Below are positions 23,749 through 62,288 of a DNA stretch of 64,000 nt, in pieces (positions within the stretch are counted from its first letter, which is position 1; every line of letters starts with the position of its first letter). This DNA comes from Nectonema munidae (Eukaryota > Nematomorpha > Nectonematoida > Nectonematidae). A program made the translations under genes and the position numbers. The DNA lies in assembly GCA_030549495.1 (NCBI GenBank), contig JAUIRK010000497.1, forward strand, positions 101,580 to 165,579, written 5' to 3'. The notes beneath the pieces were generated by a model. It worked only from the letters and a program-made list of their open reading frames with translations, did not search any database and was not told the origin of the DNA.

Positions 23749-23752
23749 TTAA

Positions 23753-30057: not shown

Positions 30058-30481
30058 GTAATACCTTTCCTATTCTATCATACGAATATATGTGTGTATG
30101 AAGATGAAGCAGCCTATTGAACAGATAATATATATGCTCTGCTGTTTCTCGAAGCAAACAATAAGAGTGCTAAAGAATGCTGTAAAATCTTTCCTAGTAT
30201 TAATCTATTATCCAATGTTCTAATACTATATGTGAGTTTTAGAAGCTAACTAAAATTTGATTCCGATACAATGCCTACGTAATTAGACATGCGTGTACGA
30301 GTTAGTAGACCGTTATTTATTCTAAAGCAATAGCTATTCTCTTTTTACTTTCCCAGAAATGATGTATGTTTAGCTTTTGAGAATTAAATATATGACTTCT
30401 TTATTTTGAACCAATGGCTGATAGAATTGAGTTGATTAGTGATAATACAAACTCATATTTTCATTTTTTCCTTTACTACAG

Positions 30482-30799
30482 TTGAAAGAATACATAGAAA
30501 AGTGTCTTAGGGATACAGTTCAGCACCATTATGCCAAAGACCGTGCAAAGTCAAGAGCATTAGATTTTCTTCAAGAAACCTTTCAATGTTGTGGAGCGGA
30601 CAGTTACCTGGACTGGCGATTTTCGTATTATTCAACAGGTTCCATTGTTCCAGAGATAGGAATGGGAGATTCTTCTGTCAAATTGCCGGCCAGTTGTTGT
30701 ACATCTATGGCTAAAAAACTTTTTGGAGATAACTGCGGCAATGAAAAACATACTTCTATTTCCAAACTTCAAAACAATGCCTCTTTAGTTTACACTTCG
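30482..30799 (+). CDS. Tetraspanin, large extracellular loop exon
   Basis: 106 codons in phase 0, bounded by CCTTTACTACAG and TCG|GTAAGG. It carries the diagnostic CCG motif (FQCCGADSYLDW), a second PASCC motif and a further Cys (DNCGNE). These supply the disulphides of the large loop. Two potential N-glycosylation sites can be seen (NNAS at the end and one across the next junction). The preceding intron is 424 bp, larger than most here. Confidence 0.92.
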
Positions 30800-30852
30800 G
30801 TAAGGTTCTTCTTTCCCTCTTGCCTGTAATCACGTTCTTTCTCTGAATTTAG

Positions 30853-34053: not shown

Positions 34054-34279
34054 TTAAATGGATATTTTAATGACTAGAACACTATTTGTGAATTTTTTCT
34101 CGATATTAGTGAGATTGAATCCTTTTGGCAGTTCGTATTCTTTGTTGAACTGCTTGAAGGACTTCTTTCCACCCACCACCTCTTCGTGCATCGCATGAAT
34201 CTTGAGCCAGTTATTTTTTAGCACCTTAACTTGGATCTCTTCTTCTTTGTAGTCAGGTAGTTCGAATGTGTACAAGATA
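34054..34279 (-). CDS. Multi-ACD gene: ACD 13 and stop
   Basis: 75 codons including TAA at 34054-34056; acceptor TTTTTACTTTTCAG, entering in phase 2. Motifs: ILYTFELPDYKEEEIQVKV, WLKIHAMHEEV, FNKEYELPKGFNLTNIE, NSVLVIKISI. An AATAAA signal follows at 34030-34035. An unspliced reading from ATG 34332 would begin with a hydrophobic run that is only the intron's pyrimidine tract. Confidence 0.87.
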
Positions 34280-37200: not shown

Positions 37201-40200
37201 TTTACCATTAAGTCACCTGTGAAAGCCAATTTACTGACAGGTAAAATATTTTGGGTGAATTAATCATCAAAAGTTGGTTTATTAAATAAATTAAGACAAT
37301 ATCAACCCAAAAAATGTTGAATATATAATATATTTTCAAGTTTATATATTAGGCATTGATTGATTTTCATGAAAAATAAATGACACCATCAGATTCACAA
37401 TAAATTATGGAGTGGGTTCGTGCGAGATTTGGTAAAAATATTCAATACTTTAAGGAAAAAGAAGCGCAAGCCTAAGCCTCCCCATCACTGAGGAAATGAA
37501 AATAGCCTGTAACGAAGGGACGATTTAGGGAAGTTAATTTGAAATAATATATACCGTTAAATAACAAATTCATTTGCTAATCAATCATTTGTATAATTAG
37601 ATGTTATATCACTGATATATATATATATACCATTTTCTTATTGAATTCGTCCTTTTTCACTTAGTATGTTAATTTAAAATACTTTTTGTAAAAAAACAAA
37701 ATTAAAAATTAAAATGATTAATATTTTTTTATGTTATTTATCGAATATATTAAATGTGTTTGGAGTGAAAAAAAATGACAAAACCTTATTGACAAGAATA
37801 TGTTATCAATCAAATAACGGGTTGGAACTTGATAGAAAAAACGTAGCAAAGATTGAAAGCGTAGCGAACTTGGATATTAATCAAAATTGTTTTACTGTAA
37901 GTAATTTTGCCATCGTATCATGCCGCAATTTCGAAACGTGTATGCGACGACCGGCGTGACATGGGTGTACCAATAAATGAAATTACTCTGGTCATAAGAG
38001 GGCTAGTCTTTTGAATCTTATAAACATTAAATGTATAATTCTCGAATGAAAATCCTCAAAAATGGAGTTGAAACAAAATATTGAAATAATTTTGTTATTT
38101 TAGGATTTTTTGCGTTAATTGACAAAATTTAAACTATAAAAGTTTTTGATAATTTTGGTATTTTTTCACTTAATTTTTCATTAAATTATTATTAAAAGAG
38201 AACATTGGATTACTTTCCATCCTTATCTTTGGAAACATTTTTTGCAACACTTGTATACATGCTGGGATCAAAAGTGAAATTGCTACTCAATACGCTCTTT
38301 CTGCAAAGTAAAAAGGATGAAAAATATAAATTAAAAGTTTAAAAAGTACTCCTTCTCGACGCTAAACTCGCCTTCATTCGGAATAGAGACGATTAAGAAT
38401 CCCTTGTCATCGAAGGCTTTCACCATCTGCTCTATGATCGCAGCCTTGCTCAGCGAGTACTCTTTGTTGAACTTACTTGATTGGTCTGAGTAGAGAGAAG
38501 TTGAGAGGTGCTCTGCGCTAACTTTAAGCGTTCTTTCTTCCGTTATCTCTACCTTCACTTCTTCGCGTTTGAAACTGGAGACATCGAAAGTGTAAACGCT
38601 CCTAAAATACTCCAAAATCGAATCCCTTTTCACGCCACCGCGTCTCCCTCTTACCTTCCTTGTTCATCAATAACACAATTTTTTTCGTAGTCAGGGGTAT
38701 CGCTTGATCGCAGTCTAAATAAAATTCGTTTATTCCATTATCGCACAAACGGATTCAATTTATCTCGATCCGAAACTACTAAGAAATTCATCGCTAAACA
38801 CTCTATCGCTGATTTTGCCTACCCAAATGTCTTCCTTAGGTTGCATAAAAGTTGACAAGTGTCCAACCCATTCTTCATTGGCATAATACATCTCAAAAAC
38901 TAGCGAAAAATTGATAGCTTTCCATAAGAAACATCATATCGATCACATACGTCATCAAATATATAGGATCTCAAGGCTTACGCAAAAAACTGTTTACAAA
39001 TGCGCTGTTTTATGAAAATGAGTAAATCATATTTAATAGAAGATTTTTAGACGCGACCTATTTTTAGTACCATTTTCCAATTCTATGCGCTTATTGAACA
39101 TTGCTTGATTTGTTTGGCTTTAAAAGATGTATAAAACAAGAGTTCCTTGAGGCACAAAATGCTTCATAAATTTTTTTCCACGCTCTTTATGGAGAACATT
39201 CACATTCGGGAAACTAACTTTAATGTTTGCCTTGAAATTGATCTTTCAAAATCAGTAATTGAAAGAAAGGAATTTTTCCTTTCTTAGACTTTAAACAGTT
39301 TTCATATATTTCATTCAAATGGTCATTATTCTTTATATCAGACATCAACAGGAGCTAATACTTGATTCCAACAAAATCTTTATCAGTTAATTCTTGCGCT
39401 TCTTTGGGCTCGTTGTACACATCGCAATCTAGATTTAAATCTAGATTTAATTTGAAATTTTATTCAAATTTATTTTTATTTTTGAAAATTTTCAGTAAAA
39501 AATAACAAAAAGTGAAAATAATTTCTTAAAATAAAAATTAGTTGTTTTTGAAAAATTGATAAAACAGATCATAAAAAATTATATGAATTTAATAAGTGAT
39601 AAAATAGTGAGTTTGATGTACATGCACAGTTTCCTTTAGACATTAAAAATTTTTTCGATTCAATGCAAAAATTACAATTTTGTTCTTTTAAAAACTAAGA
39701 TTTTAGCTATATTTTTTTTGAAAAAATGATTTTGTCTCAAATTGACAAAAAAAAAAGTGTGTACTTATGGGTTAAACAGGAGTCGGTTCCTAAATTTAAA
39801 AGCTTTAAGATATATCATCGTCAAAACGAATGTTTTATTCCATATGCACGAACTGTGATGTCAGGAAAATTCTCCGAAAAGACAATTGACCGCAAACTTT
39901 TTTTTCTTTGGATAAAATTTACAAAAATTAAAATTAGCTAGTTGGTAAATTACTCAGTTATAATTAGTAACCAAAATACTGGGTGTGCAGACAAAATGTC
40001 TAAAGACAAAATCTCAACAGACAAAATATATATACAAAATATACACACGAAAGTGTATATATTGTCTTTTTTTGTCTTATATGCAAAGAATTGAAAACAA
40101 ATCATATTTATATTTGTTAAAAAAATTTTATTCTTTGAAAATTTGCATGCATACCTCATTTCATAGGGGTAATCTGAAAAGCTGGAAAAACTGCCTGAAA

Positions 40201-43200
40201 TTGAGTTCGATGACCCTAACTTGAAAATGAAATCTACGCGATTTTAAATTTGAATTTTTTTTGAGAAAAAATAAGATCAATAACAGTCAACCCGCGTTTT
40301 TCGGTCACAATCTCTTTTTGAAAAAAATGACAGATCTAAGAGACTGGAGGAAAATTGAAACAATATCTACCATAATAAACTTTTTATTCTGTAATAAAAG
40401 AAGTTATTCTTTATGAAAAAGCTAGATGTTATCTTTCCTTTGTTATCTTTTGAACTGCAGATATGATATTATTTATTAGAAAAAATTGAAAATTAGATTT
40501 AATGCAAAGAATGAAGCTGTATAATTTGGTTGATATACTCCTTTCATTAAGAGTAATGCGTATGTTTATGATTATCCGTATAGTGTCTATTTTTATGGCT
40601 ATGGATCTTTAGAATTTATTAGATATCTTTGAACAGCTTGAAACCATTAAGTAGTCGTAATTATTTTTTTACATGTACTTCAGTTCAAAAATCATTTAAT
40701 ATAAATTTAATCACGATATTTATCTTAAAAGTTATCTTTTTTTGTGATCATCTTTAATAATGAATAATTCTTTCCTTTATGTTTTTTCGCAAATAAATGT
40801 CCTCGTTCTTCTCCGTCATTAACGACGACTTGAGAACTATTTCCGTTTTTTGATACTTTTTCATTTAATTTGCTTAAACCTGGAAAGAATTGGACTCAAC
40901 ATTTTGAACTTATGACACTTTGATAAGATTTTTTAGAATTGTATACTTCGAGGGGTGTTTTTGTTTTATAGTGATGAAAAAACGCTACCTGTTGAAAGTC
41001 GGCATCGCTTGATTTTTCGCACTTGCATTTCTTTTGAACTTGACGAGTAAGCGGCTGTTTTTCATTTCACACGCCATGCTTTCGATTATGAGATTTGGAA
41101 GCAAGGGATATTCTTTGCAGAAGTTTTCTGTTTGGTTGTTCACATTTGTTCTTTTTGCCGTTACTTTGATCGTGCCTTCAAAAGTAACTTGAGAATCAAT
41201 GCTTTGTGTTGGATATCCTTGTGTATCAAACTCATAAACAACTCTAAATCATTTAATGCAAGTTCATTAAGTATACAGGAAAATAAGCAATACAATTAGG
41301 ATCAAGAATTACCTATCCTCACTATCGATGTAATAAAATTGTTCATTTGTATCTTTGCCTTTTTGTTCCTGGATATTTCTTAATCGTGTGAAAGAGTGAA
41401 TTAACGACAAAGCACACGTATATATTTATATATATTAATGCATTAGAAACCTTGTGTTATCTTTTTGGAAATCCGTGATTGCAATTTTTACAACGAGTTG
41501 ATTTTGCGAGAAAGAAGGCTCCACTTTTTTGGTATCCACGAAGTCGGGGATGGCGAACATTTTTATGGTGTTATCTCCTCCTTTCATCTTATTTGAAATA
41601 AGTAGCTTTTTATCTGAAGTGACTTTGATGCTCACGTCTTCAGGCTTGGTGTCGAACAGGTCTACTTTATACACTATGCTGAAATATAGAAAGATTTTTT
41701 TATAACTTTTAGGTATATAAGTGCCAAAAGATTACCATTTATTAACTTCATCAATTTCGAAATCTTTTGAAAAAGCAACTTCCTTTTTGTTAGTTGCACT
41801 GAAAAAAGAAAAATAATACAACCTCTTTAATGAAACTCTGATTGAAAAAAGATACGTGTCAATGTTTTGAAGTATAACTTTTTGTTCTTTTGAAGAAGAC
41901 TTTTTGAAATCAATGATCAAGTACTCCTTTTCCAAGGAAGTCTTTAGGATCTTTTCAATGAAAAGATTTTTAGGAAGAAGAGTCTCTTTTTCAAATCTCT
42001 TCACGACTCTTTTGTTATTAATAACTTTGTCTTCAACAGAAAAAATTTTGATCGAATTATTTTGAGTTACTTCAACTTTACAATCGTTGATAGCATTAAA
42101 GTCAGAAATGTTGATTTTTATTTGAAACCTTGACAATAACAGAATAAAACAATAAAAAGGAGAAAAATAGGGCAGAATTTGTAAAATAGTAGTAAAATAA
42201 AAAAATATTTTATTAAAATTGAAACTTTGCAATAAAAAATTGAATTCTTGACATTTTAGTATTAATGCTGCGCTTGAATTATGATGAAACCAATATATCA
42301 TTTGCTATTATATGAAAGATTTTATGATTTTATTAAAGACAGAGCTATTTATCATTCAATTCTTTTATGCAAAGCACTTCCTTCAACAATAATTTAATAT
42401 TTTTCATTTAAAAATAATAGATATAAAAGTAATCACGTGTCATCATCATCATCAGTTTCACTATTTTTGGTGATATTTTCGTGATTATCAAGGCACACAT
42501 CTTCAGGCTTATTTGTTGCCTTATCAGGGCTAAAATTATGAAAGATCTGTTGTAAAAGTTCAAAATAAAAGTGAGTGTCGAATATTACCTTGAAACTCGG
42601 CTTTCATATTCTAAGACGAGTGTTTCTTCGTTAACTCTCGCATTTTTTATGCTTTGAACGATGGTGTTTTTTGGTAAAGAAATTTCCGAATGAAACACCC
42701 TCTTGCATTTGGAGCCATCATCGGCGATAGAATCTTCATCTTCAATTTCAATTTTAACAATCTTTTCTTTCTCGAGTACTTTGAAAGTAAGATTTTCGGA
42801 TTTTGTTGTAGGCGTTTTGACCACAAATCTTTCTCTGAATAAAAAAAATGAAAAACATTTTGAAATAAATGAAATATGAAATTACTTCTGAATTGTTTCT
42901 GTTTTATTGGTTGCGCTGTCATAAACACTATCATCCCTTGTTAGCACTTCAATGATTAGTTCTTCGCTTTCAGATATGAATCGCTTTTTAATGCTTCTTG
43001 CATCAACATCTTCAGGAATTTGGAACTCCCTTCTACTTACAACTCTTTCCACCTTTTCGTTGATAATTTCATCTCGCACCAATTTAACTAAAATAGTCTT
43101 TCTCTCTGTTAGTTCTACTTCAACATCCTTTGGTTTATAGCCAGTTATTTTTACGCAAGTTTCGATACTTAAAGAGAAAGCTTTATTCCATAAAGGATAC

Positions 43201-46200
43201 GTATGATTTAAAAAAGAAAAAATACTTTCCCGTGACATTTTTGTCAAATTTAGCTTCTTCAATGACTGATTCCTGTTCTTTGGGCATATTTAAAGGCTTT
43301 CCTACTCTACTTTCGGGTGCATTCGTCTGTAGGGGCGTGAAATGGACGAATAGTTGGCCATCTAAGCACTTGGTCGTCATGCTTTCCACGTTAGCATCTT
43401 CAGGAATTTCGTATTCTTTTTCCACATTTAGCTCATTGCTCCCTTCTTTTTTACTCATGACTCGAATTGTTTTGCGCTCTGTTACTTCAACATGAACATC
43501 TTTTGGTTCGATCCCTGAAACCTCTATCTTTGTTTCCAAGCTTTAAATAAATCGTTTAAGTAGATGTGTTATAGTTATGCAACAAGCAACACAACAGCAA
43601 CTAACGGCATATCGCAAACAAATTTTTTTACAAAGCTCTTAAATTCCTCATCACTCATCTACTTGAGATAAATATCTTCAATAGAAATAAAACAGTTCTT
43701 CATTTTGTGCTAAATGAAGACTTTGTGTCTTTTAATAAAAAAATTACTGCTCCTTCAAATGTAAACTCTTCCAGGCAATTAATATCTACTTTTCGAAGAT
43801 TAAGAAGAAAAAAGAAAATACCTTCCCTCCGTGTTTTTCGAGTACTCCGTTTTTTCGATTTTGGTCTCTTTTTCACATGTTTGAGTTTTGGTAGTTGTTT
43901 TAGTTACGTCATCCGTTCTTGTAACTCTTAAGAATAATAAGACTTTGTAGGCATTTTACTTGATGAATTTTAGATAATATCAAAATTTTTGATATAAAAT
44001 ACGTATGTCATATAACAATGGATAAAATTATATTAAGTAAATGAATGACGCTTCAAACAACCCACACACTAAGTAAATGAATGAAATTAAACAAAGTAAA
44101 TCTCCAATCACATTTTGAAAAATAAAAATTTACGTATTTTAGTTTTAATATTTTTTGATAATAGTTGTTTAAAGAGAACTCTTTACTGCCAAAGTGAATC
44201 TAAGCGTGTTTAATGAGAATGCTAATAGGAATCTTCTTCTTCTTATTTGACTACAGTCCCCAAGTTGGGGGTTGGTGGCTACAATTCGCTCTCTCCATTT
44301 TTTCGTGTCGTAAGCATCCTCTTTGTTGAGACCAAGATCTTGGAGTCACTCTGCTAGTCTATCTTTCCATCTTTTGCGTTGTCTTCCCCTGCTTCTCTTT
44401 CCATCCACTTTTTTATCCATCGCTTGTCTCACTATGTCGACCCACGTAATTAGCTGCATTTGGCTACTGCCAATACACTTATTCCAACTCCTGGCTTTTC
44501 TCTCACTTCTTCAGTTCTCTTTTGGTCTTTTGGTGTTACTCTCATAATTTTTCTAAGTATCTTCTTCTCAGTTGCTGCTAATTTCCTTTCGTCTTTTTTT
44601 CTTAAGCTCCAGCGTCCACATCCATATGTCATTACTGGTCTTACGCTTGTTGTTTCAATCTTCGCCTTCAGTTTCATCGGCATTCTTTTGTCATCCATAT
44701 AACTGTTTTTACTTCTCTCCATTTCAACCAGCTGGCATTGATCCTTGCTTGCGCCTTTTTCTCAGAACTTCCTTTCTCCGAAATATGTGTATCCAAATAC
44801 TTGAAGTTTTTTTTATTTGTTTCAACTTTTCTCCATGTCTAACCATCAATTTGCAATTGACAAACAAACAAATTAAATAAAAATTAAAACTAACTATTAT
44901 AACTAAAATATTTCTTCTTTTTCTAAAAAAAATCATAAAACATCAATTTAAAAACAAAAAATACCTAAATTATTTTTACACGTGAGCTGGAAAAAACCAC
45001 AAATGGCCTAAAAAAATTTTCTTAACAAAATTTGTTTCAATAATAATGAGAGTTCTAAGATTCGCTGTATTTTGATTAGTTGATTTTCACTATTGTTGAT
45101 TCCTGATTGAAATATGGTTAATATTTTTATATAAAAATCACATATGATACTTGGATGCTGCATTGACATGGGAGGAGCTGAAAAACAAAAGATAATAATT
45201 TTTATTTATGAAATTCAACACATTACGGATCCGTATATTCATCACATATTCAATGAAATGATCAGACTTTCAATTTTAACAAAATTCTTAAGATATAAAA
45301 GTTTTTGAGAAAATGTAGATGTATGTATCTCATATGAAAATAGCGCTCGTCACGACCGAAATATTTTTATATGCACAAATAGAATAAAGAAATACCTTCT
45401 TTTGTAAATAATGATTGATCTTTTGAGTTATTTACACGAATAGGTGTGGTTAGTCTCGAATCAAACTTTAGGGAATGAACAGTACTGGAAATTAAAATAT
45501 TGCGAAACAAAAAACAGAAAACCAAAGTACCGATCATCAAAAATGAGAACTATCGAAATAACATCTACGGTATTTTTCTGATTCTATATTTGTTTGGATT
45601 TCCATGTAAGTAAAAATTTTACTAAATCAATGCCTTTCATATTACCTGGTATACAAATATTATCATTTTAAATATAAACAATTTTTAAAGTGTTTTGAAT
45701 TGATACGAAGTCGTTTTGTTTGCATTTAAAAGACGGGCATGGTCTTTCAAAAAGATGTGATTGGATGAAAAATTCTGCATAGCAACAATTTCATATATTC
45801 TTCAAAGTAGAATAAAAGATGTCTTTAAGCTTGTTAGTTAATTTGGCGTATTAAGACTTTCTTATAATATAATGTATTTTATCTTTCAGGCATTAGTTTT
45901 CACACCGTATCTCCTACTTTTCCTTCCACACTTAAAGGAAATGGTAATTTTCGTGTGTTACTGGTCACACATTCTGTAGAAAAGGGTTAAAAGTACATTG
46001 TTTGAATAATGAAATACGTTGGAAACGATAAAATTTAATTAATTATTATTAAATAATATTATTGGATTAATATTTTCTAATTGAATTTCAAAAAAGGCAC
46101 AATTTTTGATAAAATTAATTAATTAAGGATAACGACCTGAGTTGACAATCCTACGATTTTACAAGAATAAAATTCCTTGTCTTAATAAATTTATCTTGAT

Positions 46201-49200
46201 TTATAATTAGGATTTTTAAGATTTAAATAAAGCTTCTGATTTCATTAAATATCATCTAATTGTTCTGCAAGTTAAGCGAATTAATCTGAAAGAATCCTTA
46301 AAAAGGATATGGCAGTTGAAAGAAGAATAAAAAAGTAAAGTAGACGATGAGTACTTGTTTTGATCAAAGCGTATGATTAGCTCATCATTAGAGATAGTAA
46401 CATCTTCTAGATTGTCATAAGTCAAATTGGTAGGGAGAGTGTATATTTTGCTCCACTGCTCATCAACTCCATTCACTTCATCCAATGAAACCACTTTGAT
46501 AACGCTGTCACTTATCTTTTCCACTTTTACATTTTCTGGTTTGCAGCGGTCGCGAGGTACTTTTAACTTGAAAATCGTTCTTGAAGCGAAAGTAAACACA
46601 AATATTGATTGGTATGAGAAAAGTTAAAAATACTTATTTGTTGAAATCTTTGTAAACGTTTCTTCGAGTATTTGAGAGCTAGTGTCTGAAGGTTCGCTTA
46701 TTTCAAAAGGACTTGAAAGAGTTGTGTTGGGTGTCGATGTTATGATTTCTTTAGCACTTTTTTCCATTTCACTAATGAAAATACAGCTTTAGATTTTTAA
46801 CTATTCCAACAAAGACATGAAAGTTGTTCAAAATACAAATTATGCTAAATTAACTTGAATAAATTTTATGGTTAAACGCAACAGTTACAAGAATTTTTAT
46901 ATTATATTGGATAGCAAAAGAAGAACGCGTTAATATGATTGATTGAAAGACTAATGTTTACTTTAAGATTTTAAACTGTAAATGTCTGAACACAAAGTCA
47001 TATAGGTAGATAAACGATGATACCTTTGTTAAGGCATGAAAATTTATTTTACACAAAAGTTATACTCATTTGTCTAAAATATTCAATTAATCTCGCTCAC
47101 TAAGATTTTTTTATAACTTTTCCAATTTTACCCATTGAAATATTGAAATAAAATCTTACCTAAAAATACCAAAAGATCAAATTGACCATAGAACATTACA
47201 AACATGTACTTCTAAGTATTCAATTATTATATCACTGTTCAATAAATAAAGTTCAATTAATAAATTAAGTAACGACAAATAAAATTTATTACATTTTTAT
47301 AAGGTCATTTTGACGGCACACTAAAGTAAGGTACTTTTTAATTTTTTTTCTTTTCTGTTAAAAAGTTCAGTACCAAAATAGTAATATTGATCAAGTTTAT
47401 GAAAAAAGTGACAAATTCATTCTACCAAGAGAAACCTGACTTGACCAAAAAAGACTTAGCGATCAATTTAAGGGGTGAGTAATTCTAGTGGGAAAAGAAC
47501 ATTTTACCTGTTTTAGAAATAGGAGAAGAGAATAATTGAGAAAATTAATGCCTTTACATAAAGCAATCTTTTCACCTGACTTTGTGCATGAAAGTGAAAC
47601 CCCTCTTGTTCATATTATTTTGAAGAGGGATGCACGAGACATGGAAAGGTAAAATGAAATAAAAAGGAAAAATTATATACGCACTTTGTGATAGAAATTT
47701 CTGGCAAATCTTCTCTTTCTTTGGAAGTTGGCGTCATTGGAGTGTTTACATGATCTTCGCTTTCGTGTATTCTTAAGGTGTTAGATGATTACAAGTTTAT
47801 GCAATGGATATGTATAGTGAATTAACTTTCATCCTTACTTAATTGGAGTTAAATCTGGGCTAGAGCTTTCGGGTTTGATCGGTATTTTAATCAAAAGTTC
47901 ATCTTTAGCAAAAGATGTTTCAATTTTTTCCAAGACACAATTTTTTGGAATAGAAATGTCCTTTCTGAATTGACTTTTTTTTTGCTTGCCCTGAATGAGT
48001 TCTTCGCGATCAGCTGTAACTCTCAAAGTGTTGTTGTCAATAATGACGACTTTAATGTTTTTCACTGCAAAATCAGGCATACTAACTTTAGCGATTACAC
48101 TGAAAAGGATGAAACGGAATTGATAAAAAAAATGTTTTAGAGAAGTATAAAAGTAATGAACTGTTTGTTATCGGCTAATGTGAATGGTGTTGCAGTTAAT
48201 GGCAAGAAGCTATATGTCTCTTGCATGTTCGAATCTTGGGTGCTCTTTTCTTGTACAGAAGATGTTTGAAAAGAAGATCTAGAATTTGTCGTTGTTTTAA
48301 TGAAGCTACTCTTTTCCATCATATTTGTATTAGAAAGAAAATCATCTACTTTTCTTAAAATATAGACAAAATACAGGGCGACAGAATTTTTGCTTACCGA
48401 ACAATTTCTCGAACAACCAATTTATAAACTTCGTCAAAAGATATAAAGTTTATTAAAATATTTTTAAAAAATCCCAAATTAACATGTTTTCGATGACTTC
48501 CTATTGCTCCCCTATATCGAAAGGCAGATGGGATGCATCAACGGAGAATGGAACAATGATATAGGGACAAATAATACGTTCGCTAAGTAATGCATTAACT
48601 CAGTCTCGAGCAGAAAGAAGTCAAGGAAATTTATTTGCCAAATTCAATTTTGGCGCGATCTCAAGAGTAATCAAAAGTATAAAGCATTTGCTGTCTGCGT
48701 TTTCCATCAATGTATCCAAATTTATGAAAAATGCTTCCATCTTAATATTGAATTCTGTTAAGGCACAGTTAAACCCTTGGAAAGACTGGTAAAGTTGTTG
48801 AAAACTCTAAAAGATCAGATAGGTAAATGAACCTCGAAATAAAGTCCTCCTTCGGATTGTTTTAAAAATCGTGAATCAAAAAAAAAAGATTTTCATCCCA
48901 CGTTTCAAAGATACGCTTCGCTGTATTCACCCGATAAAGACAGCGCACCTGTGTAGTTGATCAGAGCCAAAATTTTCACAAAGCAGTTGAAAAGTTGAGT
49001 ATTCAGGGCTGGTGTTGATAACAGATCAGAATTTAAATAATTTTTTTCAGAGGAAGTACTTAGAGCTAATTTGTGTATGAAATAATGGACAGTCGTAGCG
49101 TTATGTGACGCATTTTTCAAATGAGCTTGAATGTAATACGAATTTCCTTTTAACCCATTTAAGGCCAAGCAAAGCAGACGATATCTAAAAAAAATGCAGA

Positions 49201-50878
49201 CGATTTATATTCAAAGTTATTGAAAAAAGCAGACGAAGATGAAATTACTTATGTTCCAAAATAGGAACATTGGCCGTAAATGGGTTAATATAACCACCTA
49301 GTTATGATGATGATTCATTTAAACCCCCACCCTTCTTGTAGAATGATTTTCTGAATATGGCATTGGTGGATAGGGTCCAATCTTCGTACATCAGACTAAC
49401 TTTTCCAATCCAGTTCATTCTCTTTGAAAAATTGTAGATGGAGAAAATATCGAGGTCAGCCAGATTTTTAGTTATGAAAATTTTTTATGGTTTCATTTTA
49501 AATAGGTTAGATATTTTAAAGGGATGACAATTTTTGTCATGAAGAAACAAACTAAAAGTGGCACATGACCCTGTAAGAGATGGCGTACCACGTGTGCTAT
49601 GCTTTTCATAACTTGGATAATTCGGTGTAAAGGAATTGAGGTTAGGTGACGAATATATCCCTTTACTTCTCGCTTCATTCTCATAAATTCATTTCTGCGT
49701 ATTGTGTTAAAAATAATTGGAAAAAGTCATAGTTAGCGGTGATGAACCCTAGAAAACATCTTGACTCATTTGAAGCAAGGTTATTCAAAATAAAAATAAA
49801 AAAATGGTGTAGTTAAATTGTACTCAAAGACATCAGGAATATCAAAATCCTTTTCAAAATCCTTCGTGCCAAAGTTTGTAGATTTTCTAAAGACTTTGAC
49901 ATAAGTACTATCTTTTCGAGTTTCCAGCACATCCGGTTGCAGGAATGATGAACTCAAATCCTGTTGAATCCTTTAAAAATATGTTTCTGTTTCAATGAAC
50001 TATCATACATGAAAAGGAATGGAAGAAGCGTTACCTGCGTGTGCTTGTAGAAATAGGAATCTTTAGAATCAACTCATTGACAGAGTAAAAAGACTTTATT
50101 TTATCTTTCATGGCATCGTTAGGAAGAGATATTTCTTTTTCCATTTTCTTCGAGTTTGTTCCATCCTTGTGCTCAGCGCAAAGCAAAATCGTATTTTTGT
50201 TTGTCACTTTCAAACTTATTTCACTTGGCTTAAATCCTTTGACATCAATTTTAATAATCTTCCTAAATATATCAAATTTATTCTTACTTTAGTTTTCAAC
50301 AATTTTTGTAAAATAATTCTATTCTATTCTCTCAGTACTTTTTATATAAATAATTAGGGTGTTTTTCATTTTAGACATTTTTAGAATTTTATTACTCAAA
50401 ACCCTTTAAATTAGTTAAGAATTTTTTATATGAAAATTAGTGCTTTTCCATTTTTCACGCATTCAAACAAAAGCTACAAAAAAATTAAAAATTTTCAAAG
50501 TTATAAGAGAATATAAAAACTCTCAAGAATATACCATTCATAACATTATATATATATATTATAAAAACTTTCAAGAATAGACCATTCATAACGGACTAAA
50601 ATTACATTTAAAATCAAGTTACTAACTTTGAGTCACTTCAAAATAAAAGATAAAATAAAGTTGAGTTACTTCAAGCAAGTGTTAAAAACAATATTCCAAT
50701 TAGTTTTTCCTCTTTAAGGTTTTTTTTTTTTCCCCCGGAAAAGAGGACCTCTAATTTTTTAAATTTCCCGGGGGTTCCTGGGAAGAAAAAAAAAATTTTT
50801 TTTTTTAAAAAAATTTAAAAAAAAAATTAATATTACATTTAAAATTTTTTTTTTAAAAAAAAAAATTTAATTAAAAAA

Positions 50879-50910
<32 letters not shown>

Positions 50911-51032
50911 GTGTTTTTTTTTTTCCTTTTTTTTTTTTTTTTTTTTAAAAAAAAAACAAAAACCCTTCCAAGTTGTTTTTTTTTTTTTTTTTTTTTTTAT
51001 TATTTTCTTTTTTTTTTTAAAAAAAAATTTTT

Positions 51033-51065
<33 letters not shown>

Positions 51066-54000: not shown

Positions 54001-56683
54001 TACAATTTGGAAGTGTGAAAAAGGCCCCTAATTAGGATACATGGTAGCATATCGATTCCGTGCTGAGAACATCGGTCGTTTGTGGTTATTTTTAAGAAAA
54101 TCAATACTCTTCGTCTAGAGAATCTTTCATTCGGGAAACATCGCTAAATCTTTGCTCAGTTTTATTTTCTTGCGACAAATTCCTCACCGTTGTGTACTCC
54201 TTCTCGCCCACATTCTTAATGGTCCTGCAAAAAAGAGAAAAAGTGAGAAAAGAAAAGAGATATGAAATAATTCAACGAGGTGGAAGAAGTTTCAGAAGCA
54301 GTTCTGCTTTCGCTAGTCCCTTGGGCGCCAGGAATAATCAAGGTTAGCTCGCCATTTTTCGATAAGAAAGTTTGGATTTCGTTATCCTTCACTTCGTAAG
54401 GGATGGTGATTTCCTTGCTAAACTTCTTACTACTTTTACTATTTCCCGTTTCTTGGATATGAGACGCAAATATCTTCAATCGATTTTTCTTCAGTTCGAC
54501 ATTTATGTCTTCAAGGGAGAAGCCATTTAAATCAAACTGGTAAACTAGGCTAAAAAAACAACAAAAATATGTTAATCAACTTATCAGTAAAATAAATGTA
54601 ACATGACTACGAATGAATAGTTAGTTCACTGCACCAGTTGAGATTTGAGACCAATTAATTGATATTTAGAGTTAAGGTTTAATGTGGCTTTTATACTTAA
54701 AGAGATCATCAACGACTAGTATGATAGGTATTTGGGATAATTCCGTTTATGCCTAATAATAATAATATAAAAGCAAGATAAATATATTTTTTAAGTTTTT
54801 TTATTCCATATCGTTCTTCTTATTTACTTCTTATGATGTTTCTAGTATTAAAATTTATTAAACTGATATATCTACACATTAAAATGTTATATTATTAATT
54901 TTGTCTTATCTTGTTAATTTTATTGGAATACAAACAAAAACCGATAATTCAGGAGTAGGCCTTAAAATCAACGTCTCAAAATACCCAATCGATATTTATA
55001 AAACTAATCACATAGATTACCTTAGCAATCTAAATATCTTTAAATTAGAAACTATTTGAAAATACCAATTTAGATTTTTACTTTTAATGATAGCAGTATT
55101 GAGAAAACGAGAAGGCTGTGAAATTATACTTAGCTTAGGATTTTTTTTCAAAATTTCAGTGAACTGTTCACCCCTTCCACCATAAAGTATTGCTTTAATT
55201 AAAAATATAACCTTGAAATCTGGAGGTTTACGAACATTTTTGTGAAATGTAATCATATTGCAATCAATCCATTATATACCAAATATTATTTTCCCTCAAA
55301 CAAATCATTTCAGCATGATGTAGGACCGCGTGGACTCATTATATGAAAAATTATTAGGTAAAATATTGCATTACTTGCTTATTTTTATATAAAGCCAAAA
55401 TATTTTCTAAAAAATTGCCGACCTGAATTCCATTTCGGCCAAAAGTGCACGGTTAAGAAACCATGGCCTATGAGTAGAGAATGTGCATGTAGTTCACAAA
55501 GACATCGTTAAACGAAAGATCCTCACTTTCATTATTGTATTAATGCCCTCGTCCACACAGGTATTGGAAAATTCGTATCATGTGTTGTGTTTATCATTTA
55601 TTAACCCATTTAGTACCAATGTTTTCAAAGGAAAAGCAGGGGAACTCTTGTTTTGAATTATTAATGAAGTTGTCTGCGTTCCCTTTGGGAACATTGGAAT
55701 TAAATGGATTAAGGGCCAAAAATAATTAATCATAAGTCATTTAAAAATATTAATAGCAATTTATATTATATTATTATAGTATTATTTTATTATTAATATT
55801 AATCAATATATATAATCAATATTGATAATCAATATATGTAATTATAATTGTAAATTTTAATATTTCAAAAAATTTAATTTATTTGCATAACTTAGGTATA
55901 AAGACTAGGCAAAACTGTTTTTATTAGCCTTAGGTTTTCTCCGAATAAAAGACATCAAACAAAGAATGGAGTAATTTTTAGCATAGCAAGTAATTAATGC
56001 CCCATTTCGAATTATACAATGTGCCGCTTTTGGAGCGCGTGGTATGGGTTGACCACCCCTGGATTAGATGATAAGAACTATCTCATTAGTATGAGCAGAA
56101 AAAGGATTACTTATTTTCATTTTGCATCAAATTGGGAATATCAAGATCACTACTTCTTCTGAATTTGCTTTCTTTAGAAGAACTAAGATGCTTGGTCGTC
56201 TCTTTTTCAAGAAAATCTTTCTCGCTAGCACTATTTGAAGGGGAAAGTGTGTAAGAAAGGAATGTTGAAAGAATAAGTGCCTTACTTTGTATTCTGTGCC
56301 AAGTTCGTGTGCACTTGAATATTCAAAATACCAGTGGTCGAGAGGACGGAACTGATGTTGTTGACAATGCAGCCACCTGGCAATTTATACTCTTCGTAGA
56401 ACTTGTTCAGAACAGCGCCGTCACCGCCCACGTGTTCTGCCATCACGATTAAGTTCGCGTTGCTTTTCACTTTCACAAAAATTTCTTCGATTTTGAAAGG
56501 ACTCATGTCCAATTTCAGCTTGATCCTGTTAACCATCAGAAACAACTCAAATGCTGCAAAATGTGTACAAAATCTTACTTTCCATCTGGTTCAGGGTGTA
56601 ATGTTGCCAACTGTGATTTACCTTCTGATACGTTTACTTTTCTTTCATCTAAATTCACTTTAATCATCTTTTCGCCTTTGAAA
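34054..56683 (-). CDS. Giant multi-domain small heat-shock-like gene, 13 tandem ACD exons (whole model)
   Basis: Candidate joined model, minus strand, exons in transcription order: 56683-56579, 56525-56286, 56230-56111, 54549-54277, 54224-54108, 50262-50035, 49970-49824, 48353-48162, 48099-47839, 47771-47685, 46771-46634, 46579-46355, 45484-45396, 45177-45151, 43924-43822, 43540-43226, 43167-42886, 42834-42589, 42529-42437, 42128-41856, 41798-41736, 41678-41451, 41378-41313, 41243-40989, 38714-38655, 38601-38350, 38300-38214, 34279-34054. That is about 4.8 kb of coding sequence. Thirteen exons each carry one alpha-crystallin/HSP20-like domain of 75-105 residues; the others are charged or Ser/Thr-rich linkers. 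Small heat-shock proteins are ATP-independent holdases that assemble through ACD dimers; a 13-ACD chain could act as a preassembled oligomer or scaffold (inference). Nearly every junction is phase 2 and no internal exon has an in-frame stop. The true first exon was not found upstream of 56683. Splitting into two genes near 40.7-38.7 kb is the best alternative. Confidence 0.6.
34920..35860. repeat. Diverged tandem repeat, unit about 140 bp, 6-7 copies
   Basis: The motif TAAAATATATTTTTT recurs near 34930, 35065, 35200, 35346, 35485 and 35712. Each is followed by a CATGCTGATTTCATTTTTGG-like block, then GTGAAAATGTCAATCAAATA-like and AAAATTTTGTCGGAAAACG-like blocks. Spacing is 135-147 bp, except the last (227 bp). 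The copies are strongly diverged, so the array is old. It lies in the gap between ACD 12 and ACD 13. Confidence 0.65.
35861..38213. other. Gene-free part of the ACD 12-13 gap
   Basis: AT-rich without supported exons. At 37613-37660, an (AT)n run with CCATTTTCTTATTGAATTCG then TCCTTTTTCAC matches the array at 60576. Confidence 0.4.
38214..38300 (-). CDS. Multi-ACD gene: linker after ACD 12
   Basis: 29 codons, phase 2 in; acceptor TTTTTACTTTGCAG. The product SVLSSNFTFDPSMYTSVAKN is followed by VSKDKDGK. The end AA|GTAATC reads Lys-stop if unspliced, so it is either a donor to ACD 13, 3.9 kb away, or a terminal exon. Confidence 0.6.
38350..38601 (-). CDS. Multi-ACD gene: ACD 12
   Basis: 84 codons, phase 2 to 2. 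It is among the most canonical copies: SVYTFDVSSFKREEVKVEI, TLKVSAEHLST, FNKEYSLSKAAIIEQM and DDKGFLIVSIPNEG. The Pro of the LP motif is replaced (YSLS). Ends at GA|GTACTT. Confidence 0.9.
38655..38714 (-). CDS. Multi-ACD gene: linker before ACD 12
   Basis: 20 codons, phase 2 to 2; acceptor TATTTAG, donor AG|GTAAGA. The product is RSSDTPDYEKNCVIDEQG. It joins in frame to ACD 12 across a 53-bp intron. Confidence 0.65.
38750..39440 (-). pseudogene. Unidentified decayed coding stretch in the ACD 11-12 gap
   Basis: Minus-strand readings keep protein-like pieces in changing frames: EPKEAQELTDKDFVGIKY, IKNNDHLNEIYENCLKSKKG, ERGKKFMKHFVPQGTLVLYI and ANEEWVGHLSTFMQPKED then VFSDEFLSSFGSR. Stops separate them. 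The family is not recognised. It could be a dead gene copy inserted here. Confidence 0.3.
40725..40872 (-). CDS. Possible alternative terminal exon of the multi-ACD gene
   Basis: Open frame from an acceptor (TTTAAG before 40872) in phase 2, ending in TAA at 40725-40727. The product is Lys-rich (KLNEKVSKNGNSSQVVVNDG, then HLFAKKHKGKNYS). It has no phase-compatible donor, and a possible ATTAAA poly(A) signal lies at 40705-40710. It could be the true 3' end of the ACD 1-11 gene or an alternative last exon skipped in the long form. Confidence 0.45.
40989..41243 (-). CDS. Multi-ACD gene: ACD 11
   Basis: 85 codons, phase 2 to 2; acceptor AAATGATTTAG, donor AG|GTAGCG. The domain is VVYEFDTQGYPTQSIDSQV, IKVTAKRTNVN, FCKEYPLLPNLIIESM, KNSRLLVKFKRN. 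It has no usable ATG near its start, so a simple ORF search misses it. Confidence 0.84.
41313..41378 (-). CDS. Multi-ACD gene: short linker after ACD 10
   Basis: 22 codons, phase 2 to 2. Polar product (NIQEQKGKDTNEQFYYIDSE). Acceptor CACACGATTAAG, donor AG|GTAATT. Confidence 0.62.
41451..41678 (-). CDS. Multi-ACD gene: ACD 10
   Basis: 76 codons, phase 2 to 2; acceptor TCTATATTTCAG. Motifs: IVYKVDLFDTKPEDVSIKV, LLISNKMKGG, KMFAIPDFVDTKKVE, FSQNQLVVKIAI. The donor AG|GTTTCT is unusual. Confidence 0.86.
41736..41798 (-). CDS. Multi-ACD gene: short linker after ACD 9
   Basis: 21 codons, phase 2 to 2, 57 bp after ACD 9; acceptor TTCTTTTTTCAG. The product is ATNKKEVAFSKDFEIDEVNK. Good splice sites on both sides. 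Confidence 0.65.
41856..42128 (-). CDS. Multi-ACD gene: ACD 9
   Basis: 91 codons, phase 2 to 2; acceptor TGTTATTGTCAAG, donor AC|GTATCT. Motifs: FQIKINISDFNAINDCKVEV, SIKIFSVED, FEKETLLPKNLFIEKILK and EKEYLIIDFKK. Confidence 0.82.
42437..42529 (-). CDS. Multi-ACD gene: acidic linker after ACD 8
   Basis: 31 codons, phase 2 in. The product starts PDKATNKPEDVCLDNHENIT and ends in an Asp run. If spliced at AC|GTGATT it joins ACD 9 in frame; otherwise TGA at 42434-42436 ends the protein, with a possible ATTAAA poly(A) signal near 42391. This is one of the positions where a gene boundary could lie. Confidence 0.55.
42589..42834 (-). CDS. Multi-ACD gene: ACD 8
   Basis: 82 codons, phase 2 to 2; 51 bp after ACD 7. 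The first strands are diverged (RFVVKTPTTKSENLTFKV), but FHSEISLPKNTIVQSIKNA and NEETLVLEYESR are typical. It has a Glu/Asp-rich loop. Confidence 0.83.
42886..43167 (-). CDS. Multi-ACD gene: ACD 7
   Basis: 94 codons, phase 2 to 2; 58 bp after ACD 6 with no separate linker exon. Motifs: IETCVKITGYKPKDVEVEL, TILVKLVRDE, SRREFQIPEDVDARS and SEELIIEVL. It is the only copy that keeps Arg at the FxRxxxLP position. High similarity to ACD 6 suggests a recent duplication. Confidence 0.88.
43226..43540 (-). CDS. Multi-ACD gene: ACD 6
   Basis: 105 codons, phase 2 to 2; acceptor TTTATTTAAAG. Motifs: LETKIEVSGIEPKDVHVEV, TIRVMSKKEGS, VEKEYEIPEDANVES, CLDGQLFVHFTP. The tail after the domain is rich in Pro, Glu and Lys. 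Confidence 0.88.
43822..43924 (-). CDS. Multi-ACD gene: Thr/Lys/Glu-rich linker before ACD 6
   Basis: Open frame with TRTDDVTKTTTKTQTCEKET, then KIEKTEYSKNTEGR. The donor AG|GTATTT is in phase 2. Two acceptors are possible: 43926 (phase 2, joins directly to ACD 5-type exons) or 43924 (phase 1, joins the micro-exon). Confidence 0.65.
44225..44900 (-). mobile_element. LINE C-terminal fragment inserted in an intron of the multi-ACD model
   Basis: Minus-strand reading contains TTSVRPVMTYGCGRWSL, then EKKILRKIMR, and in another frame LITWVDIVRQAMDKKVDGKR, then GRQRKRWKDRLAE. This is the end of a non-LTR RT protein (PV-TYG---W, then RGRP--RW-D). It ends at a GAAGAAGAAGA-type tail near 44236. The frame break near 44460 and an internal stop show it is a truncated, decayed copy, in sense orientation with the host gene. 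Confidence 0.88.
45151..45177 (-). CDS. Multi-ACD gene: candidate micro-exon
   Basis: 27 bp between GTTTTTCAG and A|GTATCA, phase 1 to 1, encoding PPMSMQHP with split codons at each end. It restores the phase needed at 43924 but rests on short signals only. Confidence 0.3.
45396..45484 (-). CDS. Multi-ACD gene: linker exon after ACD 5
   Basis: Enters in phase 2 and leaves in phase 1 (89 bp); acceptor TTTTAATTTCCAG, donor G|GTATTT. The product TVHSLKFDSRLTTPIRVNNS is followed by KDQSLFTKE. Reasonable splice sites but no domain. Confidence 0.5.
46355..46579 (-). CDS. Multi-ACD gene: ACD 5
   Basis: 75 codons, phase 2 to 2; acceptor TTTCGCTTCAAG, donor AA|GTACTC. Motifs: TIFKLKVPRDRCKPENVKVE, VIKVVSLDE, WSKIYTLPTNL and ISNDELIIRFDQ. 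It is more diverged in the first loop than the others. Confidence 0.82.
46634..46771 (-). CDS. Multi-ACD gene: Ser/Thr-rich linker exon before ACD 5
   Basis: 46 codons, phase 2 to 2; acceptor GTATTTTCATTAG. The product EMEKSAKEIITSTPNTTLSS is followed by SEPSDTSSQILEETFTKI. The ATG in MEKS is an alternative gene start, which would make ACD 5 the first domain of a second gene. Confidence 0.6.
47685..47771 (-). CDS. Multi-ACD gene: linker exon after ACD 4
   Basis: 29 codons, phase 2 to 2, 67 bp after ACD 4. The product is acidic and polar (IHESEDHVNTPMTPTSKERE). The donor AA|GTGCGT is weaker than most. Confidence 0.6.
47839..48099 (-). CDS. Multi-ACD gene: ACD 4
   Basis: 87 codons, phase 2 to 2; acceptor CATCCTTTTCAG. 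Motifs: VIAKVSMPDFAVKNIKVVI, TLRVTADREEL, FRKDISIPKN, FAKDELLIKIPIKP. It ends in a Ser/Pro tail. Confidence 0.87.
48162..48353 (-). CDS. Multi-ACD gene: Ser/Thr-rich linker exon before ACD 4
   Basis: 64 codons, phase 2 to 2; acceptor TATATTTTAAG, donor CA|GTTCAT. The product reads FLSNTNMMEKSSFIKTTTNS and then a Ser/Gln/Thr-rich stretch. The internal MMEKS could be taken for a start codon, but the exon has a good acceptor and open frame upstream. It resembles the linker at 46634-46771 (EMEKSAKE). Confidence 0.65.
49154..49284. mobile_element. piggyBac MITE, copy 3 (in an intron of the multi-ACD model)
   Basis: It starts CCCATTTAAGGCCAAGCAAA and ends TTGGCCGTAAATGGG, with TTAA on both sides (49150-49153 and 49285-49288). 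At 131 bp it is the longest copy; the GCAGACGA motif occurs three times inside. Confidence 0.9.
49824..49970 (-). CDS. Multi-ACD gene: linker exon after ACD 3
   Basis: 49 codons, phase 2 to 2. The product starts IQQDLSSSFLQPDVLETRK and ends KDFEKDFDIPDVFE. The second half (YVKVFRK---NFGTKDFEKDFDIP) looks like the middle of an ACD, so it may be a degraded domain. Confidence 0.6.
50035..50262 (-). CDS. Multi-ACD gene: ACD 3
   Basis: 76 codons, phase 2 to 2; acceptor GATATATTTAG, donor AG|GTAACG. Motifs: KIIKIDVKGFKPSEISLKV, TILLCAEHKDG, MEKEISLPND and YSVNELILKIP. The FxRxxxLP Arg is Lys. Confidence 0.87.
50719..51162. other. Homopolymer-rich block, possible assembly artefact
   Basis: About 440 bp made almost only of long T, A, C and G runs (for example C5GG, G12, T20+). 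No biological repeat unit can be seen. The texture differs from all surrounding DNA and resembles low-quality consensus. The 88-codon Phe-rich ORF here is meaningless. Confidence 0.7.
52067..53120 (+). mobile_element. Jockey/CR1-like LINE reverse-transcriptase relic
   Basis: Plus-strand pieces in shifting frames include DASDDNGISVNHLKLIK, KSYRPISMTK, FLDLSRAFDSVSRQI (the SKAFDTV motif), and FVDDIS near 52876 in place of FADDTS. The order is that of an RT palm domain. Stops and frameshifts at 52420, about 52500, 52751 and 52860 show it is dead. It lies antisense within a large intron of the multi-ACD model. Confidence 0.88.
54108..54224 (-). CDS. Multi-ACD gene: linker exon after ACD 2
   Basis: 39 codons after TCTTTTTTGCAG, 52 bp downstream of ACD 2. 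Charged product (TIKNVGEKEYTTVRNLSQEN, then RMKDSLDEE). Unspliced reading stops at 54101; the phase-2 donor GA|GTATTG lies just before that stop. Confidence 0.6.
54277..54549 (-). CDS. Multi-ACD gene: ACD 2
   Basis: 91 codons, phase 2 to 2; acceptor GTTTTTTTAG. Motifs: LVYQFDLNGFSLEDINVEL, KIFASHIQE, FSKEITIPYEV and SKNGELTLIIPGA, then a Ser/Thr tail. The donor TC|GTTGAA is weak but the only phase-compatible choice seen. Confidence 0.85.
54550..56110 (-). other. Intron between linker 1 and ACD 2
   Basis: A 1.56-kb gap with one piggyBac MITE (55605-55708). No exon with both phase-2 splice sites and protein-like content was found; the ORF at 55017-55256 has no match. Confidence 0.4.
55605..55708. 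mobile_element. piggyBac MITE, copy 4
   Basis: It starts CCCATTTAGTACCAATG and ends ACATTGGAATTAAATGGA, flanked by TTAA (55601-55604 and 55709-55712). The orientation is that of copy 2. The interior CGTTCCCTTTGGGAACATTG is shared with the other copies. Confidence 0.83.
56111..56230 (-). CDS. Multi-ACD gene: linker exon after ACD 1
   Basis: 40 codons, phase 2 to 2. Hydrophilic product (SEKDFLEKETTKHLSSSKES, then FRRSSDLDIPN). The donor AA|GTAATC reads as Lys-stop if not spliced, so a terminal exon is the alternative reading. Confidence 0.6.
56286..56525 (-). CDS. Multi-ACD gene: ACD 1
   Basis: 80 codons, phase 2 to 2 (acceptor ATGGTTAACAG, donor AA|GTAAGG). It shows the ACD pattern: KLKLDMSPFKIEEIFVKV (first strands), LIVMAEHVGG, FYEEYKLPGG (the F---Y-LP motif) and STTGILNIQV (the G-L strand). 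The residue normally Arg in FxRxxxLP is Glu here. Confidence 0.85.
56579..56683 (-). CDS. Multi-ACD gene: first recognised exon (linker or truncated domain)
   Basis: 35 codons between TTATTTTAG and AA|GTAAGA, phase 2 to 2. The product KMIKVNLDERKVNVSEGK resembles the first strands of an ACD and then breaks off into LATLHPEPDGK, so it is either a shortened ACD or a linker. It has an internal ATG (56667-56669) that could be a start, but the phase-2 acceptor suggests a further upstream exon. Confidence 0.55.
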
Positions 56684-60919: not shown

Positions 60920-61363
60920 CTACTTCGTGAGCAGAGTTACGGATCCTGACTTTGAGCCGAGCATGCTAAGAGCTCCGTTTGTGCAGGCATAAGCTAACTC
61001 TGCCCAAAAAAGTTTATCTTCTTGAAAAAAGTTGGAAACCTTCATCGGATTTTCCGAGATGAACCGAACGTAAACCAAAAACTTTGGAAGCTGTGCGATC
61101 TCTGTGAATTCTTCAAGTTGGATGAAAAAGAAGGGAGAGACCTGAAGTTTAATATCCGGCGACAAGTCATGGAAGCTTTGATTAGTTGGTGAAGAGACTT
61201 TCCTATTTAGCTTATTGGCATGCTTCTGATCCACGAGAAGACGATCAGCCTCTATCATGCAAAGTTTAACTAGCGTTTTTCCAATTGTGTGTGGCTTATA
61301 CTGTGCTTCGGAATAAAAAAGGAAATCGAACATTTTACTGCCTGAAAGAGAACAATTATACAA
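60920..61363 (-). mobile_element. ZBED5/FAM200-like hAT transposase fragment
   Basis: An open frame of 147 codons. It reads PHTIGKTLVKLCMIEADRLL, then FFIQLEEFTEIAQLPKFLVY, then KLFWAELAYACTNGALSMLG. This matches the middle of ZBED5/FAM200/SCAND3-type hAT transposases (TIG--LV-PC, IQLDESTD---L-QLLVYVR, CTDGAP-MLG). Key positions differ (LEEFTE for LDESTD, TNGALS for TDGAPS), so the catalytic Asp residues appear lost. It is a fragment without the N-terminal BED finger or C-terminal dimerisation region. Confidence 0.88.
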
Positions 61364-62208: not shown

Positions 62209-62284
62209 CCCATTTAAGGCCAAGCAAATCAGACGAAGATGAAATTACTTATGTTCCCAAATGGGAGCATTGGCCGTAAATGGG
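62209..62284. mobile_element. piggyBac MITE, copy 5 (shortest)
   Basis: 76 bp from CCATTTAAGGCCAAGCAAAT to CATTGGCCGTAAATGGG, flanked by TTAA (62205-62208 and 62285-62288). It is nearly identical to copy 3 with the middle removed (shared CAGACGAAGATGAAATTACT). Confidence 0.9.
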
Positions 62285-62288
62285 TTAA

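What the first reader, a model, noticed from the sequence alone, without database searches (positions are those of the whole stretch)
34054..56683. A possible 13-domain alpha-crystallin protein: a concatenated small heat-shock chaperone
Thirteen minus-strand exons each encode an ACD/HSP20-like domain with the same landmarks (I/V-x-V-D first strand, K/R-x-x-E loop, F---Y-LP, G/N-L-I/V-I). Linker exons lie between them, and the whole set can be joined in one frame. Typical small heat-shock proteins have one ACD and rely on oligomerisation, and flatworm p40-type proteins have two. A 13-ACD chain of about 1,600 residues would be a covalent oligomer, which to my knowledge is not a described architecture.
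Basis: partly seen in the sequence, partly recalled or inferred. Interest (0 to 1): 0.93.

Follow-up and report, generated by a model that had tools for sequence, protein, structure and literature searches.

The report
Thirteen-exon alpha-crystallin chaperone domain array
A probable animal genome carries thirteen intact alpha-crystallin (small heat-shock chaperone) domain exons in a row that can be spliced in one frame; at least six probably sit in one protein, but whether all thirteen do needs a transcript.

Summary

With 13 proposed linker exons they join into a 1,555-aa frame; 25 of 25 junctions are phase 2 and 16 of 25 introns are 49-72 bp. One 13-ACD protein is possible but not shown: single ACD exons elsewhere in the genome have the same apparent phase-2 acceptor, so phase shows common origin, not one transcript.

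Best supported is a compact six-ACD core (A6-A11, 43.5-41.0 kb) that is hard to split into genes. At most outer places a split costs 9 bits or less, or none (10-16 at A11|A12). Four linker exons are no better than background.

Two-, three- and seven-ACD proteins are in print, so this is a longer variant of a known kind. Probable function: ATP-independent holdase with tethered ACDs. No transcript, homologue or heat-shock-element evidence was found.

The parts
56579..56683 (-). L0: candidate first exon, ATG at 56667, acceptor at 56683, donor phase 2; also open in phase 2 upstream, so it could be internal
   Evidence: 2-2 exon score 17.3; coding signal weak, 13% of flank windows as high; not among the top 25 initial exons
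56286..56525 (-). A1 ACD exon
   Evidence: Pfam HSP20 32.4 bits; leave-one-out E 1.6e-9
56111..56230 (-). L1 linker exon
   Evidence: score 17.5
54277..54549 (-). A2 ACD exon; very weak donor (CTC|GTTGAA, -2.5)
   Evidence: Pfam HSP20 40.3 bits; donor
54102..54224 (-). L2: linker exon (donor after 54108, weak) or terminal exon ending in TGA at about 54.1 kb
   Evidence: acceptor 16.5; coding 18.1, 0 of 2885 flank windows as high; donor 1.0
50035..50262 (-). A3 ACD exon
   Evidence: Pfam HSP20 27.8 bits
49824..49970 (-). L3 linker exon (uncertain)
   Evidence: score 12.5, background level
48162..48353 (-). L5 linker exon (uncertain)
   Evidence: score 11.0, background level
47839..48099 (-). 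A4 ACD exon
   Evidence: Pfam HSP20 26.1 bits
47685..47771 (-). L6 linker exon (in-frame ATG at 47737, so a first exon is not excluded)
   Evidence: score 18.1; initial-exon score 14.2
46634..46771 (-). L7 linker exon (uncertain; in-frame ATG near its start, could be a first exon)
   Evidence: score 13.3
46355..46579 (-). A5 ACD exon
   Evidence: leave-one-out E 5.8e-7; not listed for Pfam HSP20
43822..43926 (-). L9 linker exon
   Evidence: score 20.9
43226..43540 (-). A6 ACD exon (core)
   Evidence: Pfam HSP20 22.4 bits
42886..43167 (-). A7 ACD exon (core); groups with A6
   Evidence: leave-one-out E 1.3e-11; bootstrap 96 with A6
42589..42834 (-). A8 ACD exon (core), weakest by profile
42437..42529 (-). 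L10 linker exon; its in-frame TGA is the donor GTGA
   Evidence: score 28.6; coding above all 4723 open flank windows
41856..42128 (-). A9 ACD exon (core)
   Evidence: leave-one-out E 6.2e-11
41736..41798 (-). L11 linker exon (or part of a longer A9 exon)
   Evidence: acceptor 11.5, donor 5.6; 2-2 score 24.2
41451..41678 (-). A10 ACD exon (core)
   Evidence: leave-one-out E 1.9e-8
41313..41378 (-). L12 linker exon (uncertain)
   Evidence: score 14.7
40989..41243 (-). A11 ACD exon (core); alternative phase-1 donor after 41023
   Evidence: leave-one-out E 1.9e-9; donor 6.2
40725..40879 (-). L13: possible alternative terminal exon ending in TAA, without coding signal
   Evidence: acceptor 10.0, coding -0.1
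38655..38714 (-). L14 linker exon
   Evidence: donor 10.1 but acceptor only 0.2; score 17.6
38350..38601 (-). A12 ACD exon
   Evidence: Pfam HSP20 29.3 bits
38214..38300 (-). L15 linker exon
   Evidence: acceptor 11.7; score 24.0
34054..34279 (-). A13 ACD exon with natural stop TAA and AATAAA from 34035: terminal exon
   Evidence: Pfam HSP20 32.4 bits; AATAAA

Best explanation
A multi-domain small heat-shock protein locus grown by repeated duplication of one phase-2/phase-2 ACD exon. At least the six consecutive ACDs A6-A11, and possibly up to all thirteen, are translated as one chain of beta-sandwich ACDs separated by polar, probably flexible linkers. It would work as an ATP-independent holdase: ACDs pair inside the chain or with other chains and bind unfolding proteins, so that the protein is partly a covalent oligomer. 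Shown: ACD identity, intact frames, compatible splice phases, short introns in the core. Inferred: the transcript structure, pairing between domains, and holdase activity. The confidence given is for at least six ACDs in one protein; a single 13-ACD chain I put at about 0.3.
For: All 13 exons are ACDs by leave-one-out profiles, 7 of 13 by Pfam's cut-off. A6-A11 lie within 2.6 kb; the introns between them are 51-72 bp except one of 308 bp. In an exon model that charges nothing for a new gene, splitting the core costs 13-75 bits, and no split was found inside the 58-bp A6|A7 intron. L0 offers an ATG 16 bases after an acceptor; A13 has a natural stop with AATAAA about 20 bases on. Linkers are polar: 70% S/T/E/K/D/N/Q/P/G against 57% in the ACDs. 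The same genome has an uninterrupted frame with three ACDs on contig C664.
Against: No transcript, protein or orthologue was available. A split at A5|A6 costs -5 to +2 bits and at A1|A2, A2|A3, A3|A4, A4|A5 and A12|A13 3-9 bits, within the error of a hand-made model. With a low exon cost the same model gave two genes, split at A5|A6; with higher costs it gave one chain of 1,587 or 1,360 aa that leaves out several of my linkers, adds others and does not start at the L0 ATG. L3, L5, L7 and L12 score no better than flank. A reverse-transcriptase fragment lies in the A2-A3 interval.
Confidence: 0.7

Rival explanations
1. A cluster of neighbouring genes: a two-ACD gene at 56.7-54.1 kb (L0-A1-L1-A2-L2, 281 aa), one or more middle genes that include the six-ACD core, and a two-ACD gene at 38.7-34.05 kb. 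They work as several separate sHSPs, two of them of the two-ACD kind reported from flatworms and annelids.
For: L2 has the highest-scoring acceptor among those listed and reads to a TGA two codons after a weak donor. A two-ACD 281-aa model reads cleanly. The four largest intervals (2.3-3.9 kb) lie at A2|A3, A5|A6, A11|A12 and A12|A13. The low-cost run of the exon model splits at A5|A6. L6 and L7 hold in-frame ATGs.
Against: No high-scoring start exon outside the ACD exons was found: the best phase-2 one listed is the ATG in L6, 14.2. The initial exon preferred at A5|A6 (44722) reads like a retroelement (recalled; no Pfam match). The L13 end has no coding signal. ACDs do not alternate in type as copies of a two-ACD gene would: A2 groups with A3 (support 39), A11 with A12 (83), A6 with A7 (96). 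Intervals of 1.6 and 3.9 kb are introns even in this model.
Confidence: 0.5
2. One 13-ACD gene in which the uniform phase-2 exons are skipped or included and alternative last exons (L2, L13, A13) are used, giving chains with different numbers of ACDs.
For: All 25 junctions of the chain are phase 2, so subsets can join in frame; two possible last exons besides A13.
Against: Uniform phase is also expected from exon duplication: ACD frames on C719 and C681 have the same apparent acceptor phase (by eye). No isoform data.
Confidence: 0.15
3. A decaying array of pseudo-exons.
For: Low identity between copies, mean 23%.
Against: 13 of 13 frames intact with splice sites at the same place of the domain, and coding signal in linkers, which were not used for training: 12 of 13 chain linkers lie in the top 10% of open flank windows, though they were chosen for looking good.
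Confidence: 0.05

Closest known systems
Two-ACD small heat-shock proteins (Tsp36, PDB 2bol; flatworm and annelid dimeric sHsps, PMC9075518, passages read)
   Different: Two ACDs; here probably at least six and up to thirteen, one exon per ACD
Three-ACD EfsHSP68 of the earthworm Eisenia fetida (PMC13226371, passages read)
   Same: More than two ACDs in one chain
   Different: Three ACDs that group together; here the copies are more numerous and on average 23% identical
Three- and seven-ACD genes of penaeid shrimp (Zhang et al. 2023, Sci Total Environ 880:163239; seen only as cited in PMC13226371)
   Same: Multi-ACD architecture, the nearest in number that I saw
   Different: Seven at most in the passages I saw; exon structure not known to me
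Three-ACD frame on contig C664 of the same genome (L002/L023)
   Same: Several ACDs in one reading frame, same genome
   Different: The three ACDs lie in one uninterrupted 455-codon frame and are 41-43% identical to each other

Membership tests
Small heat-shock protein / HSP20 (PF00011) | Alpha-crystallin domain | tested here: met
Small heat-shock protein / HSP20 (PF00011) | C-terminal I-x-I/V motif outside the ACD (common, not universal; recalled) | tested here: inconclusive
   Two [IV]P[IV] in the 1,555-aa chain, residues 348 and 541, both at the end of the last ACD strand of A3 and A4 rather than in a tail
Small heat-shock protein / HSP20 (PF00011) | Heat-inducible, heat-shock elements | tested here: inconclusive
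   HSE trimer with up to 1 mismatch: 37 sites in the window, 39.6 expected (one search used the reverse complement and is the same test)
Small heat-shock protein / HSP20 (PF00011) | Holdase activity and oligomerisation | not testable with these tools
   Needs protein
Vertebrate HSPB-type sHSP (considered, not claimed) | Arginine of strand beta-7 (alphaB R120; numbering recalled) | tested here: not met
   By eye: Lys in 10, Arg in 1, Glu in 1, Ser in 1 of 13
Two-ACD sHSP (Sm-p40/Tsp36 type) | Exactly two ACDs per chain | tested here: inconclusive
   Core A6-A11 is hard to split into pairs; A1-A2 and A12-A13 could be two-ACD genes
Two-ACD sHSP (annelid type) | First ACDs cluster apart from second ACDs (PMC9075518, passages) | tested here: not met
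   Tree of 19 ACDs, low support at most nodes: no alternation along the array

The most novel reading that the evidence does not exclude
All thirteen ACD exons, and perhaps more beyond the contig end, form one gene for a chain of about 1,555 residues: a covalent sHSP oligomer. Because the exons are phase 2 at both ends, alternative splicing and alternative last exons could tune the number and identity of ACDs per molecule.
Probability: 0.3. Interest if true: 0.72.

Novelty: new variant of a known kind. Interest (0 to 1): 0.52.

Why it matters
sHSPs usually work as polydisperse assemblies of single-ACD chains, which makes stoichiometry and domain pairing hard to study. A chain with six to thirteen different ACDs would fix order and number by covalent linkage, and would show how far the two-, three- and seven-ACD designs already in print can go. 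The uniform exon phase offers a testable route for how such chains grow.

Tried and rejected
Gene ends at 42.4 and 38.2 kb: rejected, the stops are what a phase-2 GTGA or GTAA donor always gives. End at 40.7 kb (L13): acceptor 10.0, but coding score -0.1, reached by 28% of open flank windows; kept only as a possible alternative end. 54.1 kb: undecided.

Homologue search in the 5.8-billion-protein set: nothing at E 0.001 for the 281-aa two-ACD model (758 candidates) or the 1,555-aa chain (7,995 candidates scored). The set may hold few animals, so this says little about novelty.

Other poly-ACD arrays in this genome: my ACD profile (E up to 0.3) finds one ACD frame in the 49.5 kb of contig C719 read (L019, L025, L026, L029, L030) and one in the 21 kb of C681 read, which reaches the contig end (L020, L027, L028). 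ACD-like frames also on C592, C649 and C623. Own-genome searches score only the best candidates, so other loci may be missed.

Heat-shock elements: no excess (one test, the patterns are reverse complements). TATAWAAG: 19 found, 15.1 expected. Rfam at gathering threshold: 0 matches; ARAGORN: 0.

Organism: not identified; that it is an animal is inferred from a tetraspanin exon, LINE-type sequence and the mitochondrial code. COX1 on contig C107 reads with AGR as Ser at conserved positions and ATA at one conserved Met. A guess at hairworms was tested by inverted repeats in the COX1 locus (3 short pairs) and is not supported; the test is weak, because COX1 was free of them in one species of PMC10380579 (passages).

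Literature: 8 searches of an open-licence library, 7 on ACD proteins and 1 on hairworms. More than seven ACDs was not seen in these listings (25 rows shown at most). Seen: outline and passages of PMC9075518; passages of PMC13226371, PMC2850924 and PMC10380579; the rest as listings only; Zhang et al. 2023 only as cited.

Limits of the exon model: the splice-site matrices are generic animal ones written from memory, and the codon table was trained on the 13 ACD domains plus the C664 frame, so scores of the ACD exons are partly circular; linkers were not in the training. Below a score of 17 the control loses force: at 14 or more there are 9 linkers, 1 other array exon and 5 flank exons; at 10 or more 12, 4 and 11.

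The AF2 model of A8 used the 12 other ACDs as its alignment, so it is not independent of the homology claim; A8 alone finds no sHSP in the PDB by sequence. A second model (A5) was never run.

Full report

Joining. With 13 proposed linker exons the ACD exons form a chain of 26 exons and 1,555 residues without a stop; 25 of 25 junctions are phase 2. Of the 25 introns, 16 are 49-72 bp and 9 are 281-3,934 bp. Phase-2 donors of the type GTAA or GTGA always leave a stop in frame (xxG TAA, xxG TGA), which explains the apparent stops at 42.4 and 38.2 kb. As a control I scored phase-2/phase-2 exons of 55 bp or more: 8 of the 12 linkers listed in the 23-kb array reach 17 or more, against 2 such exons in 33 kb of flank; L12, L7, L3 and L5 (11.0-14.7) do not stand out, and L11 was merged with A9 there. 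Uniform phase is not proof of one gene: ACD frames on C719 and C681 carry what looks like the same phase-2 acceptor (by eye), so the exon type is inherited.

One gene or several. With no charge for starting a new gene, a hand-made exon model gives these changes in bits for the best split found (two settings): A1|A2 -3.7/-7.8, A2|A3 -6.4/-6.9, A3|A4 -8.1/-9.2, A4|A5 -3.2/-6.2, A5|A6 +5.0/-2.0, A6|A7 none found within the 58-bp intron, A7|A8 -74.6/-74.6, A8|A9 -19.6/-24.2, A9|A10 -27.3/-30.3, A10|A11 -13.2/-13.5, A11|A12 -9.9/-15.9, A12|A13 -3.4/-5.4. The core A6-A11 is therefore hard to break; the rest is not decided by sequence alone. Free runs of the model gave two genes split at A5|A6 with a low exon cost and one chain of 1,587 or 1,360 aa with higher costs; those chains are not identical to mine, shorten A2, and start at a spurious upstream ATG rather than in L0. 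The initial exon preferred at A5|A6 (44722) looks to me like a retroelement fragment (recalled likeness; Pfam gives no match). L0 holds an ATG at 56667 shortly after an acceptor at 56683, but did not rank among the top 25 initial exons. A13 ends in TAA with AATAAA starting at 34035, although AATAAA occurs 167 times on this strand of the window. L2 could be a last exon: its TGA lies two codons after a weak donor, and the nearest AATAAA is about 300 bp on.

History. The 13 ACDs are on average 23% identical; adjacent ones 25%. In a tree of 19 ACDs with mostly low support, A6-A7 (96) and A11-A12 (83) group, A2-A3 weakly (39); there is no alternation that would show copying of a two-ACD gene. This fits exon-by-exon duplication long ago (inference).

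Function. From the family, an ATP-independent holdase is the likeliest role (established knowledge of HSP20; not tested here). The beta-7 arginine of vertebrate sHSPs is Lys in 10 of 13 (by eye; position recalled). Linkers are 70% S/T/E/K/D/N/Q/P/G, consistent with flexible spacers. No excess of heat-shock elements was found, so heat induction is not supported.

What is known. Two-ACD sHSPs are the majority in an annelid survey and are reported in flatworms (PMC9075518, outline and passages). A three-ACD protein is described in Eisenia fetida, and three- and seven-ACD genes of whiteleg shrimp are cited there (PMC13226371, passages). The same genome as the window carries a 455-codon open frame with three ACDs.

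Verdict. A real, probably old multi-ACD sHSP locus. At least six ACDs in one protein is likely (0.7); thirteen in one protein is possible (0.3). A long-read cDNA would settle it.

Noticed in passing
window 20552-20654, 23639-23752, 49150-49288, 55601-55712, 62205-62288: Five short elements with TTAACCC-like and GGGTTAA-like ends in opposite orientation; they look like piggyBac-type MITEs (recalled likeness). 13 matches to the end motif (up to 3 mismatches) against 0.55 expected.
   Followed up: partly
window 52398-52748 (+): Reverse-transcriptase fragment in the A2-A3 interval; RVT_1 E 4e-6, below Pfam's cut-off. Neighbouring frames 52067-52417 and 52770-53060 have no Pfam match.
   Followed up: partly
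window 44453-44761 (-): Open frame in the A5-A6 interval that resembles the end of a non-LTR retroelement (recalled; no Pfam match at E 0.1).
   Followed up: partly
window 60923-61336 (-): 138-codon open stretch upstream of the array that contains the best-scoring flank exon (22.1); resembles a hAT/ZBED transposase (recalled), no Pfam match.
   Followed up: partly
window 30446-30826 (+): Tetraspanin exon downstream of the array, Pfam PF00335 47.1 bits.
   Followed up: no
window 50843-51177: Long A/T homopolymer tracts, possibly assembly noise, inside the A2-A3 interval.
   Followed up: no
L023 3921-5285 (contig C664): Uninterrupted 455-codon frame with three ACDs, first ATG at codon 35, followed by TGA.
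   Followed up: partly
L024 (contig C107): Mitochondrial COX1 in the assembly; AGR reads as Ser at conserved positions.
   Followed up: partly
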